NCBI GenBank assembly: GCA_012519495.1
Contig: JAAYQA010000084.1
Coordinates: 1-64,000, forward strand
DNA from: Tissierellia bacterium
GTDB taxonomy: Bacteria > Bacillota > Clostridia > Tissierellales > Peptoniphilaceae
Length of the DNA stretch: 64,000 nucleotides
Direction: 5' to 3'
A program made the position numbers and the translations under genes. Positions 25,434-41,975 of the stretch are shown here, one piece after another; within the stretch, counting starts at the first letter, position 1, and each line of letters begins with the position of its first letter. The notes under the pieces were generated by a model. It was given only the letters and a program-made list of their open reading frames with translations. It was not told the origin of the DNA and made no database searches.

Positions 25434-27160
25434 GAAACCGGCCTCGTCTTTTTATAGAGGAAGTCTTTCACTTCGGGTGCAAGTTCCTTTTCCAGGCGGT
25501 CATATACGCCCTGATTATACGCATTCAGCCAGCTGCGTTCTTTCGGTGAAAGCATATCCGTGCAAACGGGGGCGGTGTCGATATAGCAGTCAGAGAGTAT
25601 ACCGAATCGGTAGAATTCGCCAAATTCCGTTTGCGTATCCTTTTCGACATAGACGATGTTCTCTATCCGGACACCGTGCTTGCCGGCCCGGTAAATACCG
25701 GGTTCGATCGATACGATATGCCCTTCTTCCAGCGGGACATCCAAAAATGCGGTACTGATACTCATGGGTCCTTCATGTACAGACAGCATAAAACCGACGC
25801 CATGCCCGGTGCCGTGCTTGTAGTCCATCCCTTCCTGCCAGAAAGGATAGCGGGCAAACCCGTCCAGCACATGGCCGCGGGTTCCTTTCAGAAACCGGGC
25901 TGCGATCAGCTGGATATGCGAACGCAGGGTCAGCGTATAATCGCGCTTTTCCTCGTCGGTAAGCGGCCCCATGGCCACTGTACGGGTAATATCGGTCGTT
26001 CCGTCATCGTATTGTCCGCCGGAATCAAGGAGCAAAAGACTCTTGTTTTCCAATGTAGCGGAATCGTCTTCCGGCTTATAGTGAATAATCGCGCCATTGG
26101 GTCCGTAGCCGGCGATCGTTTCAAAGCTGGGTTCAGAAAAACCCGGCTGTTCCCGGCGGAAGGCAAGCAAACGCTCTGCTATTTCTTTTTCCGTATGCCC
26201 GGTGCCTTCCTGTTCTAGCCAGTAGAAAAAGTTTGTCAATGCAATACCGTCTTTATGAAAGGCTTCTTTCATGCAGGCAATTTCATCTTTTGTCTTTCTT
26301 GCTTTCAGTTTGGTAGTTGGATTCATGCCGTCCACTCGACGATTCGCCGCAATGGACTGATAGAGACGGATATTGGTCCGCGTGGGATCAAATAATATCT
26401 TCTCTTCCCTTTTTTGCAAGAACGCTTCCGCTTCCGTGTAGGAGAGGGTCTGAATTCCCTTTTGATGCAAATCTTCCTGTATGTCTGCGGGGAGTTTCTC
26501 CGGATCGATAAACAGCGCCGCATCCTCTTCTCCCAGCCAAAAATAGGCGTAGAATACCGGCGTTCCGTATACATCCGAGCCTCGCAGATTTAAAAGCCAG
26601 GCGATATCTTCCGTTGCGCCGATCCAGACGGCTTGTGCACCGGCTTTTTGCACTTCTTTGCGAACCCGTGTCAGCTTGTCCGCGACCGTTCCGCCTGCCG
26701 CGGCATGGATCGGTTGGGTAATCGGGTCTTTGGGCAATGCAGGACCGTCCGGCCACAAATCGGGGGAATGCAGATCCGGGCACAATTCTGCCGTTACCGC
26801 CTCTTTGATCTTTCGGTATTCCGATACGCTCATGCGCCATCCGTCCACGGCAATGACCGCGTCTTTCGGTAATTCCTGCAAAAAGCTCTCGATGCTTTTC
26901 GTCTCGGGATACGCCGTACAGTACAAGTCTATCCCCGTGCCGCGCAGCTGCTTTTCTCCTTGCAACTCATAGCGGCCGTCGGTCCAGAGACCGGCGCTTT
27001 CCTTTGTCACAACCAGTGTGCCGGCGCTGCCGGTGAAGCCCGATAAGTGTGCGCGCAAACGGTAAGCCGGCGCCGGGTATTCACTCTGATGCGGGTCTGC
27101 TGTCGGAATGACAATAGCGTCATATCCCTTGTTTTTCATATAATCTCGTATCGTTTTCAT
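25430..27160 (-). CDS. pepP: Xaa-Pro aminopeptidase P, long form
   Basis: M24 metallopeptidase that removes N-terminal residues preceding proline; cytoplasmic peptide recycling. 576 residues from ATG 27160 (GGGAG five bases upstream); the frame is open 34 codons further but crosses the promoter at 27194-27223. Two creatinase-type N-terminal domains, a pita-bread catalytic domain with metal ligands in LLDSGGQYDDGTTDITRT, HGTGHGVG and SIEPG, and the extra C-terminal M24C domain of the long eukaryote-like form. First gene of pepP-uvrC-hprK. Confidence 0.92.
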   Translation of the reverse strand: MKTIRDYMKNKGYDAIVIPTADPHQSEYPAPAYRLRAHLSGFTGSAGTLVVTKESAGLWTDGRYELQGEKQLRGTGIDLYCTAYPETKSIESFLQELPKDAVIAVDGWRMSVSEYRKIKEAVTAELCPDLHSPDLWPDGPALPKDPITQPIHAAAGGTVADKLTRVRKEVQKAGAQAVWIGATEDIAWLLNLRGSDVYGTPVFYAYFWLGEEDAALFIDPEKLPADIQEDLHQKGIQTLSYTEAEAFLQKREEKILFDPTRTNIRLYQSIAANRRVDGMNPTTKLKARKTKDEIACMKEAFHKDGIALTNFFYWLEQEGTGHTEKEIAERLLAFRREQPGFSEPSFETIAGYGPNGAIIHYKPEDDSATLENKSLLLLDSGGQYDDGTTDITRTVAMGPLTDEEKRDYTLTLRSHIQLIAARFLKGTRGHVLDGFARYPFWQEGMDYKHGTGHGVGFMLSVHEGPMSISTAFLDVPLEEGHIVSIEPGIYRAGKHGVRIENIVYVEKDTQTEFGEFYRFGILSDCYIDTAPVCTDMLSPKERSWLNAYNQGVYDRLEKELAPEVKDFLYKKTRPVS

Positions 27161-27193
27161 ATTCACTCCCGTATTTCTTTGATTATTACCATC

Positions 27194-27223
27194 ATTATAC
27201 CAGTGTCCTCCTATAGACGCCAA
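27194..27223 (-). promoter_or_regulatory. Promoter of pepP-uvrC-hprK
   Basis: TTGGCG (27218-27223), 18-nt spacer, extended -10 TGG-TATAAT (27194-27202). Confidence 0.65.
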
Positions 27224-27321
27224 ATACGCGACAGATAAAATACAACGCGGAAATCTGTACAAGAATCATGCGTTATGTTACGATAATGCGGACTTGGAAT
27301 GTACGTAATGGTTTGCTGCTC

Positions 27322-27344
27322 TTGCGATGCATACCGTATCGCAA
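27322..27344 (+). other. Leader hairpin upstream of ychF
   Basis: Perfect 7-bp inverted repeat TTGCGAT / ATCGCAA with a 9-nt loop inside the long ychF leader. No T-run follows directly. Role unknown. Confidence 0.35.
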
Positions 27345-27412
27345 AGGCAAAAACCGCTGTCGCGCCTGTGGGCGTGTTTTATTTTGTGTTTAATGAGAAG
27401 AAAGAGGATAAA

Positions 27413-28507
27413 ATGAAATTAGGAATCGTGGGTTTGCCCAATGTAGGCAAGAGTACCCTGTTTAACGCTATTACCCATGCCAAAGTCGAAATGGCCAATT
27501 ACCCGTTTTGCACAATCGACCCCAATGTAGGGCTCGTAAAAGTGCCGGATGAACGCCTGCAAAAACTGGCGGATATGTATAACAGTCAGCGTATTGTGCA
27601 TGCAGCGATTGAATTCTATGATATAGCGGGCCTCGTCCGGGGCGCCAGCAAAGGCGAAGGGCTGGGTAATCAGTTTTTGTCGCATATCCGCGAAGTGGAT
27701 GCCATCGTGGAGGTGCTTCGCTGCTTTGAAGATGAAAATGTCGTGCACGTAGACGGATCGGTAGATCCGATACGTGATATTGAAACCATCCATGTGGAAC
27801 TGATGCTGGCCGATCTGGAAATTGTCGAAAAGAAGCTGGAAAAGATACGCAAAGTCGCTAAAGCCGACAAGGCCATGCGACCGGAGGCCGATGCCCTGGA
27901 GAAGGTTTATGCCACCCTGTCGGCCGGTAAATCCGCCCGCACGGCGCCCTTGTCCAAAGAAGAATGGGATCTCCTGCGCGGGTACGGTTTGCTGTCTGCC
28001 AAACCGATGATTTTCGTCGCCAATGTAGCCGAAGCAGAGATCGCAGACGACGGGGCAAACAATCCGCATGTGGCTGCACTAAGAAACTTTGCACAGGAGA
28101 ACAAGGCCGAGGTTGTCGTCATATCCGCCGAGATTGAAGCGGAGATTGCCGCATTGGACGATGCCGACCGCGCCGTTTTTATGGACGAATTAGGGCTTCA
28201 CTCATCCGGACTGGACCGACTGATCGTTTCTTCGTATGATTTGCTGGGCCTGATGAGCTTTCTCACCGCCGGCCCCCAGGAAGTCCGCGCATGGACGATC
28301 CGTAAAGGAACGCCGGCCGTGGAGGCCGCGGGCAAGATTCATACCGATATACAGCGCGGCTTTATCCGCGCGGAAACCATCTCTTATCCGGAACTCATGC
28401 AATGCGGATCGATGCAGAACGCCAAAGAAAAAGGCCTGGTCCGTTTGGAAGGAAAAGACTATATTCTCCAGGAAGGCGATATCGTCCTGTTCCGATTCAA
28501 TGTATAA
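27413..28507 (+). CDS. ychF: Redox-regulated ATPase YchF
   Basis: Universally conserved Obg-family P-loop protein that binds ribosomes and hydrolyses ATP rather than GTP. 364 residues: [21 protein letters not shown] at the N-terminus, switch region [22 protein letters not shown], the NVAE motif replacing NKxD (explains ATP preference), coiled-coil domain and C-terminal TGS domain. The ATG at 27413 follows GAGGA and matches the family N-terminus; the frame is open 38 codons upstream but that stretch is leader RNA. Alone on the plus strand with a terminator after it. Confidence 0.96.
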
Positions 28508-28518
28508 GGAGTATGCGA

Positions 28519-28560
28519 AAGACGCATGTTCGTAAACACTTACGGCATGCGTCTTTTTTT
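28519..28560 (+). terminator. Terminator of ychF
   Basis: 10-bp stem AAGACGCATG/CATGCGTCTT (28519-28528 with 28546-28555) and a seven-base T-run. The left arm begins with A-rich sequence, so it may also end the opposing esterase transcript. Confidence 0.85.
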
Positions 28561-29371
28561 ATGCTTCGATCAGGAATCGGAAAAAGCGCGGGAACACTTT
28601 CCGCCACGCGCGTTCGGAATGGTTTAAGCCGTGTTCGATCACGATTTGCAGCTGATCGGGGTGCATGCCCTGTGCCAGAAGAGCCTGTGCCAACCAAAGC
28701 GTGGCATTGATATAAGCCTGCGAGAGGGATTTCTTTCTCCCCCCTTCTTCTGTCCCGCACTGAATAAAAAAGGTGCTGTCCGTAAACCGGTTTTGCCTGT
28801 TTCCATCCTCATCCTGCATACAGGCGGATAAAAACCGCTGCAGTTCCGACTCACGGAACAACCAGATCGCAGGGGAAAACAGCCCGATTTTAGAGAACAC
28901 CTCAGCGTGGGCGATCCCTGCGTAAAACGAAATATTCGCTCCGGCAGAACTGCCGGCCATGAAAGTGGTTTCTTTTCCGGGCAACGTACGAAGTGTCTGA
29001 TCGATATAGGGTTTCAGATCGTAAACGATCCAATCCAGATAATGCGCCCCATAGAATTCCGCATTTGTATTGTTTTGTTCCTGTATCGCAAAGGCGGAGT
29101 ATTCCTGAATGCGGGCATCCTGTGCATTTTCGATTCCGACAACGATCATGCCGGAAAAACCCTTGCGTTCTGCAGCTTCCATGGTTTGGCGGACCCCCCA
29201 GGAAACGCCGGCGTAGGAGGTTTCGTTGAAAAAGAGATTCTGTCCGTCATGCATATATAAAACGGGAAAATGCTCCCGCTTGCGTTTTTCATATTGGCGC
29301 GGCAGATAGATCTGTATATTGCGCGGTTTGTCATAAGGGATTTCCTTTTGTATCTGAATGATTTTACCCAT
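28559..29371 (-). CDS. Alpha/beta hydrolase, esterase (Fes/YbbA-like) family
   Basis: 270 residues of the putative esterase family related to enterochelin esterase and esterase D. Catalytic triad candidates: Ser in MAGSSAGANIS (nucleophile elbow, about residue 143), His in EHGLNHSERAW near the C-terminus, and an acid between them. VLYMHDGQNLFF is the conserved oxyanion-side motif. No signal peptide, so it is cytoplasmic. Unrelated neighbours; the substrate is unknown (carbohydrate ester, siderophore ester or acyl ester are all possible). Confidence 0.8.
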   Translation of the reverse strand: MGKIIQIQKEIPYDKPRNIQIYLPRQYEKRKREHFPVLYMHDGQNLFFNETSYAGVSWGVRQTMEAAERKGFSGMIVVGIENAQDARIQEYSAFAIQEQNNTNAEFYGAHYLDWIVYDLKPYIDQTLRTLPGKETTFMAGSSAGANISFYAGIAHAEVFSKIGLFSPAIWLFRESELQRFLSACMQDEDGNRQNRFTDSTFFIQCGTEEGGRKKSLSQAYINATLWLAQALLAQGMHPDQLQIVIEHGLNHSERAWRKVFPRFFRFLIEA

Positions 29372-29446
29372 GGTTTATCCTTTCTTTGGATCGCTCCTAT
29401 ACTTTACCCGAAATCGAGCGTTTAGAAAAGGATCCCCGCCGGACAA

Positions 29447-29480
29447 AGAAAAAGAGAGAGCCTTTTGCCCTCTCTTTTTC
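29447..29480 (-). terminator. Terminator of the sugar-acid-type catabolic operon
   Basis: Stem AAAAAGAGAG/CTCTCTTTTT (29449-29458 with 29470-29479) with T-rich sequence following on the minus strand, about 60 bp after the SDR stop. Confidence 0.75.
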
Positions 29481-29537
29481 CGGAACCGCTTTTTCCTATT
29501 TCAACACCCTTCAAAAACAGAAGAATGGGGTTGATCC

Positions 29538-30296
29538 TTAATCCATGTGCATGCCGCCGTTGATGTCGATTTCTTCTCCGGTGATATACGAAGCCTCTTC
29601 CGATGCAAGAAACAGAATCGCTGCAGCGACTTCTTTGATCTCTCCGGGGCGACCGACAGGGATGTTCTCAATAATTTTGTCTGCCTGTTCCTTAGGCAAT
29701 GTCTTCCAGATATCGGTATTGATCAAACCCGGGCATACACTGTTGTTGGTGATACCATGCATGGCATATTCGCGCGAAAAATTCTTGGCAAAACCGAGGT
29801 CCCCGGCTTTAGCGGCTGAATAGTGCGCGCCGCCGAAGATTCCGCCGCCCCTTTTCGCCGATACAGAAGAAAGATTCACAATACGCCCATATCCTCTTTC
29901 TTTCATCGCTGCCGCTGCCGGTTTGGTAATATTGAACATGCCGTAGAAGTTGACCTTAAAGATGCGTTCCACATCCTGAATGGTCATGTCGGCGATCGTG
30001 ACTTTTTGCGAAATACCGGCATTGTTTACCAGCACATCCAGTTTACCGAATGTATCGACGACCTCTTGTACGGCTTTTTCACAGGCTTCCGGATCGGTTA
30101 CATCCAGATGGATGGGCAGGGCTTTTCTGCCTAATTCTTCAATCAGTGCGCAGGTATTTTGCGCCCCGGCAAAATCCAGGTCTGCAATAGCCAGATCCGC
30201 ACCGGCTTTCGCAAATTCCAACGCGGTGGCGCGTCCGATCCCTTTTTCCGATCCGGCGCCGGTAATTAAAACAACACGTCCGTCAAATGTAAACAT
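29538..30296 (-). CDS. SDR family NAD-dependent dehydrogenase
   Basis: 252-residue classical short-chain dehydrogenase: cofactor loop TGAGSEKGIG (12-21), NNAG (91-94), catalytic Ser 143/144, Tyr159 and Lys163 (YSAAK). The acidic DLD after the second strand (about residues 39-41) predicts NAD(H) over NADP(H). Last gene of the TRAP/transketolase operon; its ATG overlaps the preceding stop by one base (TAATG). In this context it most likely oxidises a hydroxyl of the imported compound to a ketone that the transketolase can use. A general annotation would be 3-oxoacyl-ACP reductase-like, but the neighbours argue against fatty acid synthesis. Confidence 0.85.
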   Translation of the reverse strand: MFTFDGRVVLITGAGSEKGIGRATALEFAKAGADLAIADLDFAGAQNTCALIEELGRKALPIHLDVTDPEACEKAVQEVVDTFGKLDVLVNNAGISQKVTIADMTIQDVERIFKVNFYGMFNITKPAAAAMKERGYGRIVNLSSVSAKRGGGIFGGAHYSAAKAGDLGFAKNFSREYAMHGITNNSVCPGLINTDIWKTLPKEQADKIIENIPVGRPGEIKEVAAAILFLASEEASYITGEEIDINGGMHMD

Positions 30297-31237
30297 TACT
30301 TTGCCTCCAAAAGTTCTTTTGCTTGTGCTACGATATTTTCCACCGTGATTCCATTAAGTTCGAGAAGTTTCTCATACGGAGCCGATTCCCCGAAAGCATC
30401 CTGAATCGCTACGATACGCTGCAATGCACCGCCTTTTTGTGCCACAACTTCCGCCACGGCAGAACCCAGTCCATTGTATTTGTTATGGTCTTCCACCGTT
30501 ACGATCCGGCCGGTCTGTATGCAGTTACCCACTTCTTCCTCATCGAGCGGTTTAATCGTATGCATGTCTACCAAACGAACGGATACACCCTCTTTTTCCA
30601 AGGCATCGGCCGCTTCTATCGCCAGGCGTACGGTATCGCCGTTGGCAATAATGGCTACATCGCTTCCTTCGCGAATGACTTTCGCTTTGCCCAGTTCAAA
30701 AGTATCCTCTTCCGAATAGATTATCGGCATGGCGTCCCGGGTAAAGCGCAGATATACGGCACCATCGTGTTCTGCCGCAGCGCGTACCAGCTTTTTCGTT
30801 GCATAATAGTCTGCAGGCATCACAACCGACATATTGGGTAAAGTACGTAAAACTCCCATGTCTTCAATTGCCTGATGCGAACCGCCGTCATTGGCGGGAG
30901 TTAGCCCCCCGTGCGAGCAGGCGATTTTCACATTCAGATTCGGATACAGGATCGACTGGCGGATCTGTTCGCCCATTCGCATGGAACCGAAAATAGCATA
31001 GGTGACAATAAACGGGATCTTGCCGGTTGTGGCAAGGCCTGCGGCAATCCCTGCGCAGTTTTGTTCCGCGATACCTACGTTTACATATTGATCGGGCAGC
31101 GCCTTTTTGAATTCACTCGTCTTGCAGGATTTTCCGATATCCGCATCGATCACGTAGATATTCGGATTTTCTTGTCCCAAAGAAACGACTTCTTCTCCAA
31201 ATGCGTCTCGTGTTGCAATCTTTTTGCTGTCCGCCAT
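30296..31237 (-). CDS. Transketolase C-terminal subunit
   Basis: 313 residues covering the pyrimidine-binding and C-terminal domains of transketolase. Catalytic Glu is in VNVGIAEQN (Glu58) and the substrate-channel His in SHGGLTPANDGGSHQ. It pairs with the N-terminal subunit upstream; the junction is TAATG, so both are made in equal amounts. A complete housekeeping transketolase is present at 60847-62805, so this split enzyme is dedicated to the operon. Two-subunit transketolases act in apulose phosphate and sulfofructose catabolism, which shows the arrangement is used for unusual sugars. Confidence 0.92.
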   Translation of the reverse strand: MADSKKIATRDAFGEEVVSLGQENPNIYVIDADIGKSCKTSEFKKALPDQYVNVGIAEQNCAGIAAGLATTGKIPFIVTYAIFGSMRMGEQIRQSILYPNLNVKIACSHGGLTPANDGGSHQAIEDMGVLRTLPNMSVVMPADYYATKKLVRAAAEHDGAVYLRFTRDAMPIIYSEEDTFELGKAKVIREGSDVAIIANGDTVRLAIEAADALEKEGVSVRLVDMHTIKPLDEEEVGNCIQTGRIVTVEDHNKYNGLGSAVAEVVAQKGGALQRIVAIQDAFGESAPYEKLLELNGITVENIVAQAKELLEAK

Positions 31238-32070
31238 TACTTCAGCCCGCCTTTCAGTTCTTCTACCGCCTGTGCATATTGTTCGTCATTCGGTGCTTTT
31301 CCGTGCCAGTCGCAGACATCTTCCATAAAGGAAACCCCGCGGCCCTTCTTCGTATTCAAAATGATCGCTTTGGGTTTTCCATTGTCCTGATAGCGGATCT
31401 GCTCCAGCACATCTACAATCTGCTGCATATCATTGCCGTCTACAACGGAATACGCATCCCATCCGAATGCAACGAATTTCTTGATAAAATCATGATTATC
31501 ATTGACTTCCCAGGTGTAACCATCCAGCTGCAGCTGATTATTGTCTACAAAAGCAATCAGATTGTCCAAATGATAATGCGCCGCACTCATAATCGCTTCC
31601 CAGATCTGTCCTTCCTGCATTTCTCCGTCACCGAGCATGGCGAAAACGCGATAGTCCTTTTTGTCCCGCTTGCCGGCTAATGCCATGCCGGTCGCGGCGG
31701 ATAATCCCTGTCCCAACGAACCGGTGGAAATATCAATCCCGGGCAGTTTTTTCATATCCGGATGCCCCTGAAAAGGAGACCCGTACTGGCGTAGAGTATA
31801 GATGGTTTCTTTCGGTACAAAGCCCAAATCGGCCAGAACGGCATACTGGATCGGTGCCACATGACCCTTGGAAAGAACAAAGCGGTCTCTGTCATCCCAT
31901 TTGGGATTGTTAGGATCGATATTCATTTCTCCGTAGTAGACGGCTACGATCGCATCTGTGCAGGAGAGCGCTCCGCCCGGATGGCCGCTTTGTGCCTTGT
32001 GAATCATCGTCAGAACGTCTATGCGGCGATCGATGGCGATTTGTTTGAGTTCTTCCACAGTTTTCTTCAT
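31237..32070 (-). CDS. Transketolase N-terminal subunit
   Basis: 277 residues with the thiamine diphosphate domain: GDGEMQEG...DNN (from residue 147), plus the conserved His in SGHPGG (30), KGH (70) and GHPD (103). Start ATG 32070 has GGGAG seven bases upstream; an upstream ATG would overlap the GarR-like gene. Together with the C-terminal subunit it forms an enzyme that moves a two-carbon glycolaldehyde unit from a ketose-like donor to an aldehyde. The donor here is not known; see findings for a proposal. Confidence 0.92.
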   Translation of the reverse strand: MKKTVEELKQIAIDRRIDVLTMIHKAQSGHPGGALSCTDAIVAVYYGEMNIDPNNPKWDDRDRFVLSKGHVAPIQYAVLADLGFVPKETIYTLRQYGSPFQGHPDMKKLPGIDISTGSLGQGLSAATGMALAGKRDKKDYRVFAMLGDGEMQEGQIWEAIMSAAHYHLDNLIAFVDNNQLQLDGYTWEVNDNHDFIKKFVAFGWDAYSVVDGNDMQQIVDVLEQIRYQDNGKPKAIILNTKKGRGVSFMEDVCDWHGKAPNDEQYAQAVEELKGGLK

Positions 32071-32074
32071 TTTC

Positions 32075-32971
32075 TTACTCCCTTTCCTTCTTTCGTACTT
32101 CAACGCCCGCTAAGCGTTCAAAATACTTGACGATGCTTCCGTGGTCTTCTTCCATCTGTCCGGCCACTTTTAACGATTGCATAATTTCATACAGCTGCGC
32201 GGACAAAGGTACCGGACAGTCAATCGCATTGGCTTCATTCAATACGTTCCGGATGTCTTTTCGATTGATCGAAATACGTCCACCCGGTTTGAAATCCCGA
32301 TTGAGTATCATAGGTGCTTTTGCATCCAGCATGACACTGCCGGCCGCGCCGCCTCGTATGGCTTCATAGACTTTCTCGACGTCGGCACCGGCTTTTTGCG
32401 CAAGGACCAGAGCTTCCGATAAAGAAGCGATATTCATATTTACGATGATCTGATTAGCCAGTTTCGTTACACAGCCGCTACCGACAGGCCCTGTCAAAAT
32501 GGCCGAAGCGCCCATTTTCAGATAATACGGTTTCAGTTTTTCAAACACATCGGCCGAACCGCCGGCCATAAAGGACAAAGTGCCGTCCATGGCTTTGGGT
32601 TCGCCCCCGCTGACCGGGCAATCGACAAAGTGCACGCCGATCCGTTCCAGACGCTCCCCGAACGAACGGGCTTCATAAGGGCTTACAGAACTCAGATCCG
32701 ATACGATCTGCCCCGGTTTCAGATGGGTGGCAAGGCCTGTTTCGGAAAACAGAGCCATGTCCACTATCGGTCCGTTGGGCAGGATGGTAAAAATAATCGG
32801 GCATTGTGCCGCAATACTTGCATAATCACCATATTCCGCCCCGGCCTCGGTTAAAACGGCGACCGCTTCTTCGACGATATCGTTCACCATCAATGGCACA
32901 CCTTTGCGTAAAAGATTCAGTGCCATGGGCCGGCCCATAATGCCCAGCCCGATAAATCCGATTTTTTGCAT
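32075..32971 (-). CDS. Tartronate semialdehyde reductase-like (GarR) beta-hydroxyacid dehydrogenase
   Basis: 298 residues of the 3-hydroxyisobutyrate dehydrogenase family, very close in motif to E. coli GarR/GlxR: GFIGLGIMG (N-terminal Rossmann), DCPVSGGEPKAMDGTLSFM (about 117-135), VTKLANQIIV with catalytic Lys170, and IRGGAAGSVMLDAKAPMI. The Asp after strand 2 (VND, residue 31) suggests NADH. GarR reduces 2-hydroxy-3-oxopropanoate (tartronate semialdehyde) to D-glycerate. Start chosen at ATG 32971, five bases after AAGGAG, rather than GTG 32977. Lies between dctM and the transketolase pair. Confidence 0.85.
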   Translation of the reverse strand: MQKIGFIGLGIMGRPMALNLLRKGVPLMVNDIVEEAVAVLTEAGAEYGDYASIAAQCPIIFTILPNGPIVDMALFSETGLATHLKPGQIVSDLSSVSPYEARSFGERLERIGVHFVDCPVSGGEPKAMDGTLSFMAGGSADVFEKLKPYYLKMGASAILTGPVGSGCVTKLANQIIVNMNIASLSEALVLAQKAGADVEKVYEAIRGGAAGSVMLDAKAPMILNRDFKPGGRISINRKDIRNVLNEANAIDCPVPLSAQLYEIMQSLKVAGQMEEDHGSIVKYFERLAGVEVRKKERE

Positions 32972-32980
32972 AGCCACTCC

Positions 32981-34261
32981 TTACTTCAGCATATTCGGCA
33001 GGAACATGGAGATCTGCGGAATATAGGTAACCAGCAATAATACAATCAGGGAAGAAAACAGAAGCAGCATCGTCGGCTTCAGGATTTTTTCCAGGGAGAT
33101 TTGCGAAACGGAACAGGCCACATACAGATTCACGCCGACAGGCGGTGTGTACAAACCGATCGCCAGGTTTACGATCATAACCACACCCAAATGGACCAGA
33201 TCCACACCGAGCGCTGTAGCTACGGGGATAAACAAGGGGGTGAAGATATACAGTGCCGATGTGGAGTCCAAAAGCATGCCGGCAATCAGCAGGACGATAT
33301 TGACGATAATGTAGAAAATAATCGTGCTCCCGCCGGTAAAGGTCGTAAATGCCGTAGTAATGACTTCTTTGATTCCCGATACCGTCAACACCCAGGCAAA
33401 GATGCTTGCATTGGCCGTAATCCACATAATGGTTGCCGAAGTCGATATCGAATCAATAAAGAGACTGCGAATGTCTTTGAGTTTGAGTTCCCGGTAGACA
33501 AACAGACCGACAACCAGACCGTATACCGCCGAGAAAGCCGCCGCTTCCGTAGGAGTAAAGATCCCGCCGTAAATACCGCCCAGTATAATCACCGGCATCA
33601 GAAGTCCCCAGAAGGCATCGCGGAAGGCAAGCCATCTTTCTTTTCCGCTCGCTTTTTCTTTTGTGACGAGATTGCAGTTTTTGTTGCCGTAGATCAGCGC
33701 GGTTACAGCAAAGCCGATCCCCATCAGGAGTCCCGGTATCAAACCGCCCATAAACAGTTTTCCGACCGATGCCCCTGCAATCGAACCGTATACAACAAAG
33801 GTAATGGAAGGCGGGATGACCACCCCGATCGCTCCGGATGTTGCCATCAGCGACGAGGCAAAGGGTACATCGTATCCGCTGGAGGCCATGGCAGGAATCA
33901 TAATCATGCCCAGGGCGGCCACCGTTGCGGGACCGGAACCGGAGATCGCCGCAAAGAAACAGGCTACGGCAACGCACACCACCGCCATACCGCCTTTTCT
34001 GTGGCCGACCGCGGTGTCGGCCAATTTGATCAGTCGTTTGGAAATACCCGCTTTATCCATAATGTTTCCGCCCAGGATAAAGAAGGGAATCGCCATAAGT
34101 ACCCACTTGCTTGTAGAAGAATAAATATTGATCGGAATCGTGATGAGGTCCACGCCTTCTACAATCAGTGCCAACATGCTCGATACACCCAGCGCAATGG
34201 CTATCGGTGTTGAGATCGCCAACAGGATGGCGAAAGATATGAATAATACAGCAGCCGTCAT
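32981..34261 (-). CDS. dctM: TRAP transporter large permease (DctM)
   Basis: 426 residues, about twelve membrane helices, the transport subunit of a tripartite ATP-independent periplasmic transporter driven by Na+ or H+. Conserved features include FILGGNIMDKAGISKRLI, GSGPATVAALG, PPSITFVVYGSIAG and the C-terminal NLAIGLYTPPVGVNLYV. The start overlaps the dctQ stop by one base (TAATG). With DctQ and DctP it imports an organic acid, most often a sugar acid or dicarboxylate. Confidence 0.95.
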   Translation of the reverse strand: MTAAVLFISFAILLAISTPIAIALGVSSMLALIVEGVDLITIPINIYSSTSKWVLMAIPFFILGGNIMDKAGISKRLIKLADTAVGHRKGGMAVVCVAVACFFAAISGSGPATVAALGMIMIPAMASSGYDVPFASSLMATSGAIGVVIPPSITFVVYGSIAGASVGKLFMGGLIPGLLMGIGFAVTALIYGNKNCNLVTKEKASGKERWLAFRDAFWGLLMPVIILGGIYGGIFTPTEAAAFSAVYGLVVGLFVYRELKLKDIRSLFIDSISTSATIMWITANASIFAWVLTVSGIKEVITTAFTTFTGGSTIIFYIIVNIVLLIAGMLLDSTSALYIFTPLFIPVATALGVDLVHLGVVMIVNLAIGLYTPPVGVNLYVACSVSQISLEKILKPTMLLLFSSLIVLLLVTYIPQISMFLPNMLK

Positions 34262-34737
34262 TATAATACATCCCCCGGTTTCGCTTTAAACGCATCCACC
34301 AGACGCAGCAGATGGCGGATAAAGATCAGTATGGCGCCGATGACTACAAAGGAACCAAAGATCCACTCAGGCCATTGCATAGTCGGCGTTTTCTGGTTCA
34401 GCAGCAATTCTCCCGCAACCATGCGGATGCCGTAGAAAATGATCAGTATCAGATAGATATTGGTCAGAACCAGTGCAAAGATACGGCAGAACTTCTGCAT
34501 CCGGAAGGGCATGCGTTCAAACAAGACCGTTACGCCCAGATGTTCTTTTCTTTTTGCCGCAATCGATGTTCCCATGAGCGTTACGAGCACAAACATATTC
34601 ACGGAAATCTCTTCAGTAAACGAGAGAGACAGACCTGCAAACTGCCGCATGATGACATTTGCAAAGGTAATCAGCGTCATGACAGCCAGGCTGACATACG
34701 ATACGGTTTCTTCAATTTTGTCGAATACTTGTCGCAT
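34261..34737 (-). CDS. dctQ: TRAP transporter small permease (DctQ)
   Basis: 158 residues with four membrane helices, the usual size of the small TRAP subunit; the ANVIMRQFAGLSLSFTEEISVNMFV stretch is typical of DctQ. Lies between dctP (10-bp gap) and dctM (1-bp overlap). It links the binding protein to the large permease. Confidence 0.93.
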   Translation of the reverse strand: MRQVFDKIEETVSYVSLAVMTLITFANVIMRQFAGLSLSFTEEISVNMFVLVTLMGTSIAAKRKEHLGVTVLFERMPFRMQKFCRIFALVLTNIYLILIIFYGIRMVAGELLLNQKTPTMQWPEWIFGSFVVIGAILIFIRHLLRLVDAFKAKPGDVL

Positions 34738-34747
34738 ACTTTGCTCC

Positions 34748-35803
34748 TTATTCCAGACCGGTCAGATTAAACGCGCGATCCGCTTCTTCCCCGTATATTT
34801 CGGCATACCGGGCAATCATCGGCTGAACCACCGCTTTAAACGCCGCCATTTCTTCTTCTGTCGGAATGTAGACATCCATCCCGGAATCCATGAACTTTTG
34901 ACGCAGTTCCAGTTCTTCCTTTTCCACCTTGTCTCTTCCCCAGTTTGCGGCTTCTGTAGCGGCTTCCTGCAAAAGTGTCTGTGTTTCCGGGGTGAGTCCG
35001 TCCCAGACCCGTTGGTTTACAACAAATAAGTATTGTTCGTATGTGTAATTCCATTCGGTCATATATTTTTGAATTTCAAAAACATTGGCTGAATTGGTTA
35101 CACTGTAACCATTTTCCTGTCCATCCAGCGTTCCCTGCTGCAGGGCCGTGTAAACTTCTCCCCACGACATCGCGACGGGATCGGCCTTGAAGGCCTGCCA
35201 GAATTCCCGGTAAATCTGCCCGCCCGGAATACGGATCTTCAAACCGAAGATATCCTCCGGTGTGCGAATGGTGCGTTCGTTATTCGTAATCTGGCGGAAT
35301 CCGTTATGCGTGGATGCCAGATAATGCAATCCCTTTTCTTTCAGTAATTTTGCATAGAAGGGGCCGCCTGTCGTATCGATTACTTCTCTTGCCTCGGTAT
35401 AGTCCGCAAAGAGCCAGGGCAAGGCTCCCACCATCAGTCTCTGATCGATCGCGGCAAGAACCGACGTCGCATAAGCGGAGATATCGGTGGCTCCCTGGGC
35501 TACCATTTCCACGCCCTTGGACATATTGCCGCCTGCCAGCTGATCATCCGAAAAGACGCTGATCTGAATATTGTTACCGGAGCGTTCGGCTACAATTTCT
35601 GCAAATCGCTGCGCGGATACCGTATCGGTTGCGATTGCGGTCCCGTTTGTTGTCATGCGGAGCCTCATGCGCGGATACTTGTCGGTATCGCCGGTTTGTT
35701 CGACGGTGCTTCCGGATGTGCAGCCGGAAAGCAGACTGACAACCAGTACAATGACCAACAAGCATGCGGTGCCTCGCAGCCCTTTGTGTTTTTTTACTCT
35801 CAT
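34748..35803 (-). CDS. dctP: TRAP transporter substrate-binding lipoprotein (DctP)
   Basis: 351 residues with a basic N-terminus, hydrophobic stretch and lipobox LLSGC at about residues 24-28, so it is anchored outside the cytoplasmic membrane. The DctP fold is shown by LKIRIPGG (about residues 155-162), whose Arg normally makes the salt bridge to the ligand carboxylate, and WGEVYTALQQGTLDGQENGYSV. The ligand is therefore probably a carboxylate. The ATG overlaps the stop of a 40-codon ORF (ATGA) and has its own GGGAG. Confidence 0.93.
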   Translation of the reverse strand: MRVKKHKGLRGTACLLVIVLVVSLLSGCTSGSTVEQTGDTDKYPRMRLRMTTNGTAIATDTVSAQRFAEIVAERSGNNIQISVFSDDQLAGGNMSKGVEMVAQGATDISAYATSVLAAIDQRLMVGALPWLFADYTEAREVIDTTGGPFYAKLLKEKGLHYLASTHNGFRQITNNERTIRTPEDIFGLKIRIPGGQIYREFWQAFKADPVAMSWGEVYTALQQGTLDGQENGYSVTNSANVFEIQKYMTEWNYTYEQYLFVVNQRVWDGLTPETQTLLQEAATEAANWGRDKVEKEELELRQKFMDSGMDVYIPTEEEMAAFKAVVQPMIARYAEIYGEEADRAFNLTGLE

Positions 35804-35922
35804 TTACCTAACTCCCTTAGTTTGTATTTGGTTCTTTTGGCTTTACCTTTGATATAGCGTTTTCCTGCTTCCTGTGAAATGATCTTGCTGTCCCCTCCTT
35901 TGATGCAATATCCTTTCGTCAT
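35800..35922 (-). CDS. 40-residue basic small protein, coupled to neighbours
   Basis: ATG at 35922 overlaps the stop of the upstream membrane protein (ATGA), and its TGA overlaps the dctP ATG in the same way (ATGA). The peptide begins MTKGYCIKGGDSK and is rich in Lys and Arg, with no membrane segment. It lacks its own strong ribosome binding site, so translation would depend on the upstream gene. It may be a real microprotein, or a translated spacer that couples dctP expression to the membrane gene. No family recognised. Confidence 0.45.
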   Translation of the reverse strand: MTKGYCIKGGDSKIISQEAGKRYIKGKAKRTKYKLRELGK

Positions 35923-36257
35923 CGCGACTGTTTGCGTTTGCTTGCCTCTTGTTTGACACGGGAGAAAAGCAAGATCATACAAGCCGCTATAGCAAGGAGT
36001 GTAGAATACGGATAGTAACTCTCGTTTTTCATAACTCCGGCTAAACCGAACAGTATCAGTGCCCCGCCGATGGTTAAAAAGACCAACGACTGTTTGCGAT
36101 CCGGTGCGGGATTCTGCCCGCTCTTCTTTTTTTCCTTCTCTTCTTGTGTGTAGGAAAATACGTGGGAAAGTGCTGAGATAGGATTGCCACCAAATGCGAT
36201 AACAATGCCTGTGACAAAAACGGCGATACCAATGAGCAACAGTATGCTATGTATCAT
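35919..36257 (-). CDS. Small membrane protein, first gene of the TRAP operon
   Basis: 112 residues with three predicted membrane helices (IHSILLLIGIAVFVTGIVIAF, FLTIGGALILFGLAG, YSTLLAIAACMILLF) and a charged loop rich in Lys and Glu between the first two. ATG follows AGGAG. It resembles the small DUF3784-type membrane proteins of Firmicutes only in general layout. First gene downstream of the operator region, so it is co-regulated with the TRAP transporter. Function unknown. Confidence 0.7.
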   Translation of the reverse strand: MIHSILLLIGIAVFVTGIVIAFGGNPISALSHVFSYTQEEKEKKKSGQNPAPDRKQSLVFLTIGGALILFGLAGVMKNESYYPYSTLLAIAACMILLFSRVKQEASKRKQSR

Positions 36258-36331
36258 GATTTCTCCTGACGGTTCGCGGCGCAGGCCGCTGTGGGAAACG
36301 ATAACATCGTTTTTTTAAACCCTGACGCAAT

Positions 36332-36343
36332 ATCGCATACAAT
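36332..36343 (-). promoter_or_regulatory. Probable GntR operator, copy 1
   Basis: ATTGTATGCGAT on the minus strand, a one-base variant of copy 2. It lies 75 bp before the first operon gene, probably in or near its promoter. Confidence 0.6.
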
Positions 36344-36375
36344 TATCATTTTTATTGTTCATGTAATGTTAGATT

Positions 36376-36387
36376 ATTGTATGCAAT
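36376..36387 (+). promoter_or_regulatory. Probable GntR operator, copy 2
   Basis: ATTGTATGCAAT, an imperfect palindrome ATTG-N4-CAAT of the kind bound by FCD-type GntR regulators. Centre 44 bp, about four helical turns, from copy 1. Confidence 0.65.
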
Positions 36388-36519
36388 CTGTTAAGTGTAA
36401 TAATACAATCCTTGGAAGGCCCTATCAAGCCTTTTCTTATTAATTATTTAGTTGTCATTTATAATCAATTGATTTCACAATCAAGTCTGAAATTTATCAC
36501 AATAAACCCTTGTCAAATG

Positions 36520-36528
36520 TGGTATACT
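36520..36528 (+). promoter_or_regulatory. Extended -10 promoter of the GntR gene
   Basis: TGG-TATACT; the predicted transcription start is near 36535, immediately before operator copy 3. Confidence 0.6.
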
Positions 36529-36536
36529 GAAAGAAA

Positions 36537-36548
36537 ATCGTATGCAAT
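36537..36548 (+). promoter_or_regulatory. Probable GntR operator, copy 3 (autoregulation)
   Basis: ATCGTATGCAAT, one base different from copy 2, located just downstream of the predicted transcription start of the regulator gene, where binding would block its own transcription. The region 36258-36586 holds the three sites, an AT-rich stretch and the two divergent promoters, but no gene. Confidence 0.65.
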
Positions 36549-36586
36549 CAATTATGATTTTGTACACTTGCCTATAGGAGGTTTGT

Positions 36587-37255
36587 ATGAGAACCCCGGA
36601 ATCTTCGGCGGATATCGCTTATGATTATATTTTGGAGTCCATCTCGTCAAGAAAATTAAAAGGCGGCGAACGTCTGAATGAAAGTACCATCGCTACGGCA
36701 TTGGATATGAGTCGTACGCCCGTGCGGGAGGCCATCCGCCGGCTGCAGCAAGACGGCTTGGTAGAAGTAAGAAAGAACCAGGGCAGTTTTTTGCGGAAAT
36801 ATACCTATTCGGAAATGGCAGACGGCTACGAGATTACCGCTATGCTGACGCAAATGGCGGTTCGCCATCTGGCGGAAAAATACGAAACACTGGACCCGGC
36901 CGGCTTAGCGGACATCCGCAATACCATTGAACGCATGGATACGTATCAGAAAGAAGGAAAGAAACAGGAATGGGTTGCTCTGGATATGTATTTTCACAAT
37001 TGCCTGATCGAACTTACAGGAATCTGGCAGCTGGTCCATACCTATCAGAATTTGATGGTCTGGGTCAATCAGGTACTCTGGCTCATCTCCCCTGTCTTTA
37101 TCGATCTGGAACGTTCCACCGGCGACCATCGTGAGATCATGCGCCTCATCGCCGAAAAAGATCCGGAAGCCGCCGGACGCTATGCCTTTGAACACCAACT
37201 GCGCACCGTTAAGCTGATGCGCACACTGGGTGAGATTAATGATGAAGTAAAATGA
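36587..37255 (+). CDS. GntR family transcriptional regulator, FCD type
   Basis: 222 residues: N-terminal winged helix (residues about 6-70; ESTIATALDMSRTPVREAIRRLQQDGLVEV) and an all-helical FCD ligand domain. The metal-ligand residues of FCD proteins are present: Asp and His in DMYFHNC, His in DHREIM and His in FEHQLRTV. FCD regulators usually sense carboxylates such as sugar acids. ATG at 36587 behind AGGAGG. Divergent from the TRAP/transketolase operon, which it most likely controls through the three operator copies. Confidence 0.9.
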   Translation: MRTPESSADIAYDYILESISSRKLKGGERLNESTIATALDMSRTPVREAIRRLQQDGLVEVRKNQGSFLRKYTYSEMADGYEITAMLTQMAVRHLAEKYETLDPAGLADIRNTIERMDTYQKEGKKQEWVALDMYFHNCLIELTGIWQLVHTYQNLMVWVNQVLWLISPVFIDLERSTGDHREIMRLIAEKDPEAAGRYAFEHQLRTVKLMRTLGEINDEVK

Positions 37256-37295
37256 AAAAATCTGCTTCCCTTTCACAGAGAAGCAGATTTTTCTA
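37255..37295. terminator. Bidirectional terminator between gntR and the DJ-1 gene
   Basis: Stem AAAAAATCTGCTTC with GAAGCAGATTTTT (37255-37268 with 37280-37292), T-runs on both strands. Confidence 0.85.
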
Positions 37296-37832
37296 TTTTT
37301 TCAATAAACCCTCGGCGACCTCGTCGCGTTTTTCTCTTCCAAACAGCTGTTCGGTAATCATCAGGGCAAAGTCCATGGCAAAAGCCGGCCCTTTACCGGT
37401 AATCAGCGGCCCGTCTGTTACGATGCCGTCATTTACATGCGTGCCTTCCCGGATATCGGCTTCTACGCCGGGATACGCCGTAAAGCGGCGGCCGGCCAAA
37501 ACCCCTGCCGCATCCAGAGCCAGCGGAGCGGCACATATGGCGCCGACCGTTTTGTCCTTTTGCAGCTGCGAACGGATCATTTTTTGTACCCGTTCATCGG
37601 CGGCCAGATTGGTTGCGCCCGGAAGCCCGCCCGGGAGCACCACGGCATCGGCTTCTTCTTCGCCGGTGAAAACTCCGTCGGCCATCACGGTGACAGCATG
37701 CGCACCGGTTACTTTCTCTTCCTTATGAATGGAGAGCGTCCGTACCTCGGCGCCGGCTCTTCGCAGCACATCCACCGGGGTGAGCGCTTCCACTTCTTCA
37801 AACCCATTGGCCAGTAAAACGATCACTTTCAT
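37293..37832 (-). CDS. DJ-1/PfpI family protein
   Basis: 179 residues of the DJ-1/ThiJ/PfpI superfamily. The nucleophile-elbow Cys is in AICAAPLALDAAG (about residue 102), with the conserved Glu of VLLANGFEEVEA near residue 15, matching DJ-1/YajL. Such proteins are reported as chaperone-like, glyoxalase or deglycase enzymes involved in carbonyl stress; which applies here cannot be told. Monocistronic or followed by nothing on this strand; shares a terminator with gntR. Confidence 0.87.
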   Translation of the reverse strand: MKVIVLLANGFEEVEALTPVDVLRRAGAEVRTLSIHKEEKVTGAHAVTVMADGVFTGEEEADAVVLPGGLPGATNLAADERVQKMIRSQLQKDKTVGAICAAPLALDAAGVLAGRRFTAYPGVEADIREGTHVNDGIVTDGPLITGKGPAFAMDFALMITEQLFGREKRDEVAEGLLKK

Positions 37833-37861
37833 TGCATCACCTCGCTATAATTCATACCCTT

Positions 37862-38125
37862 TTATATCTTATATAAATACCATCGGAAGGTGGCAGCTTC
37901 ATAACGCAACTCATAGCGGCGCTCTATACCGCCCCATTCGCTCTGGCACGCGTAGGTCAGCATAAGATTGCCCGCGCGCTTGTCTTCTTTTCGCCACAGC
38001 ACCCGGTCTACGCCGATCACCTGCAGCTCGCCTTCTTCATTTGCAATCCGATAGCGCAAAGGCACCGGCAAGCCCTCTTTCTGAAAATAAGCGATCATTT
38101 CAATTTCTTTCATCATGGTTTTCAT
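37862..38125 (-). CDS. Small protein downstream of the Y-family polymerase
   Basis: 87 residues, soluble, mixed alpha/beta with a C-terminal half rich in aromatic and basic residues (GGIERRYELRYE, FRWYLYKI). ATG at 38125 with AGAGGATC eight bases upstream, 12 bp after the polymerase stop, so it is in the same LexA-controlled transcript. Not similar to YolD-type partners of B. subtilis UvrX that I can see. Possible polymerase accessory factor, by position only. Confidence 0.65.
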   Translation of the reverse strand: MKTMMKEIEMIAYFQKEGLPVPLRYRIANEEGELQVIGVDRVLWRKEDKRAGNLMLTYACQSEWGGIERRYELRYEAATFRWYLYKI

Positions 38126-38137
38126 AACGGATCCTCT

Positions 38138-39373
38138 TTACAGTAAACTGGCCATCATCGGATAGTCTTCTTCAGCAATTACACCGCCGATCACCGGATG
38201 AATTCCTGAATCCAAAAAGCTGCTCCGATACAAGGCGGTCTGTCCGTATTTGTTTCTTACTTGGTCCACCGTGCGATCCAGCTGTACGGCTTCTTCGTCC
38301 CAGGTTTCAAAAAAACTCAGCTGGGTTACATCATTGGGAGACAAACGTCCGACACTGACACCGAGCTGGCGCAGCGGCTCACCTTCCCACAATTCCCGAA
38401 ACAGGGTTTTGACCATCGAATAAATCCGTGCAGTACTGTCGGTCGCGCTATAGAGGGTCCGCTCCCTGCCGTATCCTACAAAAGAATAATTGCGGAAATG
38501 GACATTCACTAAACGCGTATACATCCGATGCGCGCGCAATCGCATACACACGGTCTCGGTGAGTCCCAAAAGTACCAGCAGCGCATCTTCTTCCGTTTCC
38601 ACATCAAAAGCCGTTGTCGTGGAGTTGCCCACGCTTTTGGGTGGCGGTCCTTCATTTTTCACCGGGGAATTTTCAATCCCGTTGGCATATTCCCAGATCG
38701 TCAGACCCGGTTTTTTCAGCCAGTGCAGAATATAGTCCCGGTCCAGTGCCGCCAGATCACCGATCGTCCAGATGCCGCGGTCATTTAATTTCTTTTTTGT
38801 GCGCCGACCCACCATAAAGAGATCCTCGACCGGAAGAGGCCACATTTTCCGTTTTATTTCTTCCCGATATAAAGTATGTACCCGGTCCGGCTTTGTAAAA
38901 TCCGATGCCACTTTGGCCAGCAGCTTGTTTTCGCCTACTCCGATATTCACGGTAAAGCCCAGCGTGGTTTTAATACGCTCGCGGATTTCCTCTGCCACAT
39001 CCAAAGGATCACGCTTCCCCTGATAATCCAAAAACACCTCGTCTACCGAATAGCGCTGTACATACGGCGAATATTCCCGGATCAATGCCACCATGGAATC
39101 GCTGGCTACGACATAGCGCTCATATTGCGGCGCCACACTGATCAGCGACGGACATTTCTGTACCGCCGAATACACGGTTTCGCCGGTTTGTATCCCGTAG
39201 GCCTTCGCAGGAATCGACTTGGCCAGAACAATGCCTCTTCTTTTTTTAACATCTCCGCCAACGATCGACGGAATATCCCGTAAATCCAACGTTTCTCCGT
39301 GTTGAAGGCGCCAGGCCGCTTCCCAGGACAGATACGCGGAATTGACATCGATATGAAAAATCTTTCTGTGCAT
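38138..39373 (-). CDS. Y-family DNA polymerase (Pol IV/UvrX-like)
   Basis: Translesion DNA polymerase of 411 residues. Catalytic residues: FHIDVNSAYLSWEA (first Asp) and YSVDEVFLDY (second acidic pair); the steric region SVDE and finger/little-finger domains follow. It has the layout of UmuC/UvrX-like Firmicutes enzymes; QLSFF near residue 345 is a probable sliding-clamp binding motif (QLSFF). Transcribed from a promoter with a LexA box exactly between the -35 and -10, so it is SOS-induced. Followed by a small co-transcribed gene. Confidence 0.9.
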   Translation of the reverse strand: MHRKIFHIDVNSAYLSWEAAWRLQHGETLDLRDIPSIVGGDVKKRRGIVLAKSIPAKAYGIQTGETVYSAVQKCPSLISVAPQYERYVVASDSMVALIREYSPYVQRYSVDEVFLDYQGKRDPLDVAEEIRERIKTTLGFTVNIGVGENKLLAKVASDFTKPDRVHTLYREEIKRKMWPLPVEDLFMVGRRTKKKLNDRGIWTIGDLAALDRDYILHWLKKPGLTIWEYANGIENSPVKNEGPPPKSVGNSTTTAFDVETEEDALLVLLGLTETVCMRLRAHRMYTRLVNVHFRNYSFVGYGRERTLYSATDSTARIYSMVKTLFRELWEGEPLRQLGVSVGRLSPNDVTQLSFFETWDEEAVQLDRTVDQVRNKYGQTALYRSSFLDSGIHPVIGGVIAEEDYPMMASLL

Positions 39374-39394
39374 CTACTTCGCCTCCGTGTTTAC

Positions 39395-39423
39395 AGTATA
39401 CACGAACATATGTTCTGTGTAAA
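39395..39423 (-). promoter_or_regulatory. SOS promoter of the Y-family polymerase
   Basis: TTTACA (39418-39423), 17-nt spacer, TATACT (39395-39400). Confidence 0.75.
39403..39416. promoter_or_regulatory. LexA (Cheo) box
   Basis: CGAACATATGTTCT matches the B. subtilis LexA consensus CGAACRNRYGTTYC in all but the last base, and fills the promoter spacer. Confidence 0.88.
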
Positions 39424-39435
39424 GTTCTTCTTCCT

Positions 39436-39464
39436 TTTGCATTTTGTAAATTCTATGTTATAAT
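39436..39464 (+). promoter_or_regulatory. Promoter of tRNA-Pro
   Basis: TTTGCA (39436-39441), 17-nt spacer, consensus TATAAT (39459-39464), 12 bp before the tRNA. Confidence 0.75.
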
Positions 39465-39476
39465 GAGTAGGCTCAA

Positions 39477-39553: not shown

Positions 39554-39555
39554 AA

Positions 39556-40163: not shown

Positions 40164-40167
40164 AATA

Positions 40168-41960: not shown

Positions 41961-41975
41961 ATCGGCTTCCTTCCC

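What the first reader, a model, noticed from the sequence alone, without database searches (positions are those of the whole stretch)
29538..35803. Candidate new sugar-acid pathway: TRAP import, SDR, split transketolase and GarR-like reductase
The genes combine into a chemically coherent route that needs no kinase. If the TRAP system imports a pentonate (such as L-arabinonate or D-xylonate), NAD-dependent oxidation at C4 by the SDR gives a 4-oxo-pentonate. This has the ketol end required by transketolase. Transfer of the glycolaldehyde unit to glyceraldehyde 3-phosphate would give xylulose 5-phosphate and leave tartronate semialdehyde, exactly the GarR substrate. GarR reduction to glycerate reoxidises the NADH. 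Both dehydrogenases carry an Asp that predicts NAD. Precedent: transketolase is reported to split 5-ketogluconate to tartaric semialdehyde in Gluconobacter, and two-subunit transketolases are dedicated to apulose phosphate and sulfofructose breakdown. The exact substrate is inference; a hexonate or sulfonated sugar is not excluded.
Basis: partly seen in the sequence, partly recalled or inferred. Interest (0 to 1): 0.78.

Follow-up and report, generated by a model that had tools for sequence, protein, structure and literature searches.

The report
Transketolase operon likely degrading sugar acids
A bacterium carries a compact gene set (an importer, two redox enzymes and a two-piece transketolase) that probably breaks down a small sugar acid by a route I could not find described; the gene set recurs in other bacteria, but its exact food is still unknown.

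Summary
One tightly packed minus-strand operon (36257-29538) encodes a small membrane protein, DctP-DctQ-DctM (TRAP importer), a GarR-like reductase, a split transketolase (TK) and an SDR. A divergent GntR regulator follows, with three operator-like sites between.

The TRAP + split TK + SDR core is a conserved module: in another order, 15 of 20 TK loci inspected carry the SDR and 16 carry TRAP genes. Elsewhere the importer or dehydrogenase is swapped. The TK keeps every canonical residue checked, unlike sulfo-TK. A second GarR-TK linkage exists in a distant Firmicute.

Three corrections apply. L-arabinonate and D-xylonate have the wrong C3 configuration for a canonical TK donor; D-arabinonate, L-xylonate, D-ribonate or L-lyxonate fit. 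GarR is absent from the other copies of the module inspected, so it is accessory. A tetronate (D-erythronate or L-threonate, leaving glyoxylate) is a serious rival. I found no published description in an open-access library. Substrate and all reactions are inference.

The parts
29448..29480 (-). Inverted repeat after the SDR, possible terminator (weak)
   Evidence: 14-nt arms, 93% complementary, T-rich, between SDR and the next gene; not listed by the terminator scan
29538..30296 (-). SDR dehydrogenase, NAD-type, proposed to oxidise the penultimate hydroxyl of the sugar acid
   Evidence: PF13561 227 bits; catalytic Ser, Tyr, Lys and NAD-type Asp; 77% identical to L003 SDR
30296..31237 (-). TkC, C-terminal half of split transketolase
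   Evidence: PF02779 and PF02780; best solved relative 6yaj, split TK of Carboxydothermus; phosphate and donor residues conserved
31237..32070 (-). TkN, N-terminal (ThDP-binding) half of split transketolase; ATG at 32070 preferred over TTG at 32103
   Evidence: PF00456 200 bits; 6yak; ribosome-binding-like AAAGGGAG upstream and 4-nt gap to GarR
32075..32977 (-). GarR-like beta-hydroxyacid dehydrogenase, proposed tartronate semialdehyde reductase
   Evidence: PRK11559 393.7 bits, cut-off 397; best solved relative 1vpd tartronate semialdehyde reductase, E 3e-86; only copy in the genome
32981..34261 (-). DctM, large TRAP permease
   Evidence: TIGR00786 437 bits, cut-off 268
34261..34737 (-). DctQ, small TRAP permease
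   Evidence: PF04290 103 bits
34748..35803 (-). DctP, TRAP solute-binding protein with lipobox-like LLSGC
   Evidence: TIGR00787 197 bits, cut-off 175; carboxylate-binding R170, R191, N231 conserved
35919..36257 (-). 112-aa membrane protein ORF of unknown function, probably first gene of the operon
   Evidence: Same strand, 115 nt upstream of DctP; no convincing family
36332..36548 (.). Three ATTGTATGCAAT-like sites (36332, 36376, 36537), candidate operators of the GntR regulator
   Evidence: One exact and two with one mismatch; no others with at most one mismatch in the window; motif picked after the fact
36400..36428 (-). Promoter-like site TTGATA-17-TATTAT
   Evidence: 10 of 12 consensus matches, best in the region, but total count is near the chance level
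36587..37255 (+). Divergent GntR/FCD transcriptional regulator
   Evidence: PF07729 and PF00392 above cut-off

Best explanation
A sugar-acid catabolic operon. The TRAP system imports a short aldonate. The NAD-dependent SDR oxidises its penultimate hydroxyl, making an unphosphorylated ketol acid. The split transketolase transfers the CH2OH-CO unit to glyceraldehyde 3-phosphate, giving xylulose 5-phosphate and a short semialdehyde acid. The GarR-like enzyme reduces that acid with the NADH made in the first step. Most likely the aldonate is a pentonate with TK-compatible C3 (D-arabinonate, L-xylonate, D-ribonate or L-lyxonate) or its 4-oxo form, the leftover is tartronate semialdehyde (TSA) and the product is glycerate, phosphorylated by the glycerate kinase encoded elsewhere. 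Shown: genes, operon layout, family membership, conserved TK active-site residues, recurrence of the TRAP-TK-SDR core, glycerate kinase in the genome. Inferred: substrate, every reaction, TSA as product, regulation. The general scheme (acid import, penultimate oxidation, TK cleavage) I put at about 0.65; the number below is for the pentonate/TSA version.
For: Operon layout. GarR model 393.7 bits against 194 for L-threonate dehydrogenase and 166 for sulfolactaldehyde reductase. Canonical TK residues incl. R358, S385, H461, R520, D469, H26, H100 equivalents. Conserved TRAP-TK-SDR module, with importers swapped mostly for other organic-anion carriers. Independent TkN-TkC-GarR operon with GarR at 513.6 bits in L113. 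Glycerate kinase in the genome. The homologous SDR sits with aldonate-type enzymes: an IlvD/EDD-like dehydratase in L010 by eye, a DUF1537 kinase and class II aldolase in L009. 4-Keto-D-arabonate and 4-keto-D-ribonate are known bacterial products (PMC9171043).
Against: GarR is missing from every other copy of the module inspected. It falls 3.3 bits short of the curated GarR cut-off. L003, with the closest SDR, has a monosaccharide ABC importer instead of an acid carrier. No substrate, structure or activity data. Glycerate kinase is equally common in relatives without the module.
Confidence: 0.4

Rival explanations
1. Same mechanism, but the substrate is a C4 acid (D-erythronate or L-threonate). 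The SDR makes 3-oxotetronate, TK transfers its C2 unit to G3P and leaves glyoxylate, and the GarR-like enzyme (or another reductase) turns glyoxylate into glycolate.
For: Both common tetronates give the C3 configuration that a canonical TK accepts (own reasoning). Several solved TRAP binding proteins related to DctP hold erythronate or pantoate, per PMC11668362. Related TK loci carry D-2-hydroxyacid dehydrogenases of the glyoxylate/hydroxypyruvate reductase type (L110, L031). Proteobacterial clusters carry L-threonate-dehydrogenase-like enzymes. Absence of GarR elsewhere is easier to explain.
Against: GarR-family enzymes are best known for TSA (own knowledge), and this one is far closer to GarR than to L-threonate dehydrogenase. 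No glyoxylate carboligase passes the cut-off in the genome. The proteobacterial TKs are a diverged lineage, so analogy is weak.
Confidence: 0.25
2. Same mechanism with a hexonate or 5-ketogluconate: TK leaves tartaric semialdehyde (C4), which the GarR-like enzyme reduces.
For: TK cleavage of 5-ketogluconate is reported (PMC12016104), and 5-keto-D-gluconate has TK-compatible stereochemistry (own reasoning). A galactarate/altronate-dehydratase relative lies inside one related operon, L104.
Against: Tartaric semialdehyde is not a known GarR substrate and its reduction would give a tetronate that needs further enzymes not in the operon (own knowledge).
Confidence: 0.1
3. GarR belongs functionally to another route (galactarate/glucarate or glycerate metabolism) and was inserted into a TRAP-TK-SDR operon; the operon's own leftover aldehyde is something else.
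For: Only GarR in the genome. Galactarate-dehydratase-like genes lie beside the glycerate kinase on another contig. GarR absent from other copies of the module.
Against: GarR lies between DctM and TkN with 3- and 4-nt gaps, and a GarR-TK neighbourhood arises again in L113.
Confidence: 0.13
4. TK uses hydroxypyruvate as a decarboxylating donor: glycerate is oxidised (GarR in reverse or the SDR) and hydroxypyruvate + G3P gives xylulose 5-phosphate + CO2.
For: TK accepts hydroxypyruvate in vitro (own knowledge). Hyi-like isomerase, hydroxypyruvate-reductase-like and glycerate-kinase genes appear in some proteobacterial clusters.
Against: Leaves either the SDR or GarR without a job; no isomerase in the window operon.
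Confidence: 0.05

Closest known systems
Sulfo-TK pathway of sulfoquinovose (SqwGH; PMC11659671)
   Same: Two-subunit TK moves C2 units from an unphosphorylated, negatively charged ketose to G3P, giving xylulose 5-phosphate; the leftover short aldehyde can be reduced with NADH.
   Different: No isomerase in the window operon; starts from an acid by oxidation; importer is TRAP; TK keeps the Ser and His that sulfo-TK replaces with Ala and Asp.
Apulose 4-phosphate TK pathway (AptAB), from own knowledge
   Same: Dedicated split TK in a catabolic operon.
   Different: Needs a kinase; none in the window operon. Only a named AptB homologue at 32% identity was seen.
TK cleavage of 5-ketogluconate to tartaric semialdehyde (PMC12016104)
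   Same: TK splits a keto-aldonate at its ketol end.
   Different: Activity of a general or engineered TK, not a dedicated catabolic operon.
Four-carbon acid sugar catabolism (LtnD/DenD, OtnI, OtnK, OtnC), from own knowledge
   Same: Sugar-acid import and beta-hydroxyacid dehydrogenase; 3-oxo acid intermediate in the tetronate rival.
   Different: Uses a DUF1537 kinase and a decarboxylase; neither is in the window operon, which has TK instead.
Galactarate/glyoxylate routes to glycerate (GarD-GarL-GarR-GarK; Gcl-Hyi-GlxR), from own knowledge
   Same: TSA reduced by GarR to glycerate, then glycerate kinase.
   Different: TSA would come from transketolase rather than an aldolase or carboligase.

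Membership tests
Split transketolase | N-terminal ThDP domain and Pyr + C domains on two adjacent genes | tested here: met
   PF00456; PF02779 + PF02780; best solved relatives are the split TK of Carboxydothermus
Split transketolase | Catalytic, donor-contact and phosphate-binding residues | tested here: met
   All positions checked are canonical in window TkN and TkC
Split transketolase | C2 transfer from a ketol to an aldehyde | not testable with these tools
   Needs an enzyme assay
2-hydroxy-3-oxopropionate (TSA) reductase GarR | Curated NCBIfam cut-off of PRK11559 (397 bits) or TIGR01505 (340.75) | tested here: not met
   393.7 and 306.7 bits, short by 3.3 and 34; hence 'GarR-like', not filed as GarR
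2-hydroxy-3-oxopropionate (TSA) reductase GarR | Conserved SGG, TKLANQ and KD motifs, NAD-type Asp | tested here: met
   Motifs at 123, 171 and 240; VND at 31
2-hydroxy-3-oxopropionate (TSA) reductase GarR | Reduces TSA to glycerate | not testable with these tools
   Needs an enzyme assay
TRAP transporter (DctPQM) | DctP, DctQ and DctM together, DctP with the carboxylate-binding Arg/Arg/Asn | tested here: met
   PF03480, PF04290, PF06808; R170, R191, N231
Sulfo-TK pathway | TK with Ser to Ala and His to Asp at the phosphate site | tested here: not met
   Ser and His retained
Sulfo-TK pathway | Sulfoquinovose isomerase, sulfoerythrose isomerase and sulfoacetaldehyde enzyme in the cluster | tested here: not met
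   No such genes in 24000-42000 by ORF list and family scans
Apulose 4-phosphate TK pathway | Sugar kinase and apiose isomerase with the TK | tested here: not met
   None among the operon genes
Four-carbon acid sugar pathway (OtnK/OtnC) | DUF1537 kinase and OtnC-type decarboxylase | tested here: not met
   Absent from the operon; rest of genome not searched for them
SDR aldonate dehydrogenase | Oxidation of the penultimate hydroxyl of an aldonate | not testable with these tools
   Fold and motifs only; closest NCBIfam models are generic FabG-type and below cut-off

The most novel reading that the evidence does not exclude
A transketolase-based route for short aldonates with no sugar kinase in the operon: an SDR converts the acid to a ketol acid and a dedicated split transketolase cuts it to xylulose 5-phosphate plus a semialdehyde acid. 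It is spread among Firmicutes, and in Proteobacteria a homologous SDR and TRAP importer sit with a second, strongly diverged split-TK lineage.
Probability: 0.5. Interest if true: 0.75.

Novelty: new variant of a known kind. Interest (0 to 1): 0.58.

Why it matters
If true, transketolase joins dehydratases, kinases and aldolases as an entry point for sugar-acid breakdown. The gene signature (acid importer + dehydrogenase + split TK) could assign a function to many TKs now annotated only as 'transketolase'. It is directly testable with four purified proteins and known compounds such as 4-keto-D-arabonate.

Tried and rejected
AlphaFold model of DctP with the permitted shallow alignment was poor (pLDDT 47) and was not used. 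Glycerate kinase as a discriminator failed: found in 14 of 16 module genomes and 10 of 12 without, and no GarR lies beside the kinases inspected. Phosphoketolase and MOFRL glycerate kinase were not found. Proteobacterial SDR-TK-TRAP clusters were first taken as support, then down-weighted because their TK lacks canonical phosphate-site and donor residues and forms a separate clade. The sulfonated-sugar reading was rejected on operon content and TK residues. DHPS as substrate was rejected because TK needs a hydroxyl on the carbon next to the ketone (own knowledge). Literature searches found no such pathway; the library lacks most subscription papers, so this is weak evidence.
Full report
OBSERVATION. 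The genes are there. On the minus strand, 36257-29538 holds a 112-aa membrane-protein ORF, DctP, DctQ, DctM, a GarR-like beta-hydroxyacid dehydrogenase, TkN, TkC and an SDR. From DctP onward the gaps are 10, -1, 3, 4, -1 and -1 nt, so this is very probably one transcription unit. A divergent GntR/FCD regulator lies at 36587-37255. Three ATTGTATGCAAT-like sites (one exact, two with one mismatch) lie between them; no others with at most one mismatch occur in the window, and 0 of 5000 mononucleotide shuffles of the intergenic region reach three. The motif was chosen after seeing an inverted repeat, so that number is optimistic. A minus-strand promoter-like site at 36428-36400 lies beside the exact copy. 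An inverted repeat after the SDR (29448-29480) may be the terminator, but the terminator scan did not list it. The other window genes scanned are ordinary chromosomal ones.

THE PROTEINS. The TK halves match the split TK of Carboxydothermus best among solved structures (6yaj, 6yak). All residues checked for catalysis, donor contact and phosphate binding are canonical (E. coli numbering from own knowledge: H26, H66, H100, H261, E411, D469, H473, R358, S385, H461, R520). Sulfo-TK differs at two of these (PMC11659671). This predicts a TK that can take G3P as acceptor, with the usual 3S,4R donor preference (own knowledge). The reductase scores 393.7 bits on the GarR model (cut-off 397), well above L-threonate dehydrogenase (194) or sulfolactaldehyde reductase (166), and is the only such gene found in the genome. 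DctP keeps the two Arg and one Asn that bind a carboxylate. The SDR has an NAD-type Asp and intact catalytic residues.

RECURRENCE. None of 100 relatives of the host genome has a close SDR, which suggests acquisition by transfer. Close TkC homologues occur in 6 further genomes of 391 sampled in the class and in 37 of 189 genomes of another order. Of 20 loci fetched from that order, 15 carry the SDR and 16 carry DctM, usually as DctP-DctQ-DctM-TkN-TkC-SDR; one (L103) ends at a contig end. These loci come mostly from one genus, so they are not independent. Elsewhere the importer changes to an MFS (L026), TctABC (L029, L031) or a monosaccharide ABC system (L003); a CitMHS-type permease is added in L043, L099 and L110; a zinc-ADH takes the SDR's place in L029. 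In L104 a galactarate/altronate-dehydratase relative sits inside the operon. Apart from L003 these importer families mostly carry organic anions (own knowledge), which fits an acid substrate. A TkC tree puts the window in a supported Firmicutes clade of 18 rows (quick method, some long branches).

GarR AND TK. No other copy of the module inspected has GarR. One distant Firmicute, L113, has GntR, TkN, TkC and a GarR scoring 513.6 against the 397 cut-off, near an arabinofuranosidase and ABC importer genes. So GarR-TK linkage occurs twice in the data, in different TK lineages. Other GarR relatives sit with apparent carboligase and Hyi-like genes (L115, L117, identified by eye) or with DUF1537 (L114, L116). 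The host genome has glycerate kinase beside galactarate-dehydratase-like genes on another contig, so GarR could have a second job. Glycerate kinase does not discriminate, since relatives without the module have it too.

HOMOLOGOUS SDR IN OTHER SETTINGS. Proteobacterial plasmids show SDR-TkN-TkC-TRAP clusters, an MFS version in Acinetobacter and Pantoea, and SDR-full Tkt-D-2-hydroxyacid dehydrogenase-glycerate kinase in Azospirillum. Their split TK subunits lack the canonical residues at R358, S385 and H461 and change H26 and H100, and they form a separate clade. What they do is unclear, so they support only 'SDR plus TK-like enzyme plus importer', not the details. In Dictyobacter (L009) the homologous SDR is preceded by an L-threonate-dehydrogenase-like enzyme and followed by a DUF1537 kinase and a class II aldolase, which would be a kinase/aldolase way to cut the same kind of ketol acid.

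MECHANISM. A pentonate oxidised at C4 gives CH2OH-CO-CHOH-CHOH-COO-, and TK removal of C5-C4 leaves tartronate semialdehyde, the GarR substrate. A tetronate oxidised at C3 leaves glyoxylate; a hexonate leaves tartaric semialdehyde. By Fischer projection (own reasoning, not computed) the hydroxyl next to the ketone must be in the 3S sense. D-arabinonate and L-xylonate give the full D-threo donor; D-ribonate and L-lyxonate give the right C3 only. D-erythronate and L-threonate give the right 3-oxotetronate. 4-Keto-D-arabonate and 4-keto-D-ribonate are known products of acetic acid bacteria (PMC9171043), so uptake of the keto acid itself is possible. TK cleavage of 5-ketogluconate is reported (PMC12016104). 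'Needs no kinase' is true of the operon, but use of glycerate would need the glycerate kinase found elsewhere.

VERDICT. I rate the general mechanism at about 0.65, the pentonate/TSA version at 0.4 and the tetronate version at 0.25. It works like sulfo-TK but is not a member of that pathway. In the searchable open library I found no description of it. Nothing here shows a reaction; a few enzyme assays would settle it.

Noticed in passing
L006, L032-L034, L036, L051, L052, L054-L057 (proteobacterial TkN/TkC): Split TK-like enzymes beside a homologous SDR and TRAP or MFS importers, with canonical TK residues changed (R358 to P/A/S/N, S385 to Y, H461 to L, H26 to Y, H100 to S). Probably a different reaction or acceptor.
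   Followed up: partly
L113 190-5643: GntR, TkN, TkC and a GarR above the curated cut-off, next to an arabinofuranosidase and ABC importer genes: a second TK-GarR operon in a distant Firmicute.
   Followed up: partly
L042 (own genome contig C52) 2894-5495: A galactarate/altronate-dehydratase relative that appears split into a short SAF-type ORF and two overlapping ORFs (break near 3516-3519), followed by glycerate kinase. Could be a natural split or an assembly frameshift.
   Followed up: partly
L009 7059-11113 and L116 4150-7319: Beta-hydroxyacid dehydrogenase with DUF1537 kinase and class II aldolase (plus the SDR in L009): possibly a kinase/aldolase counterpart of the TK route.
   Followed up: partly
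L093, L094, L096, L097, L100, L102, L105-L108, between DctM and TkN: Small lipoprotein-like ORFs (MKK..., SxGCGN) where the window has GarR.
   Followed up: no
L028 11314-12066, L057 4373-5266, L003 7973-8638: Lactonase-like or cyclase-family hydrolases beside SDR-TK clusters, as if a sugar lactone were opened first.
   Followed up: no
window 60847-62805 (-): A separate full-length transketolase (PF00456, PF02779, PF22613) in the same window, so the split TK is not the housekeeping enzyme.
   Followed up: yes
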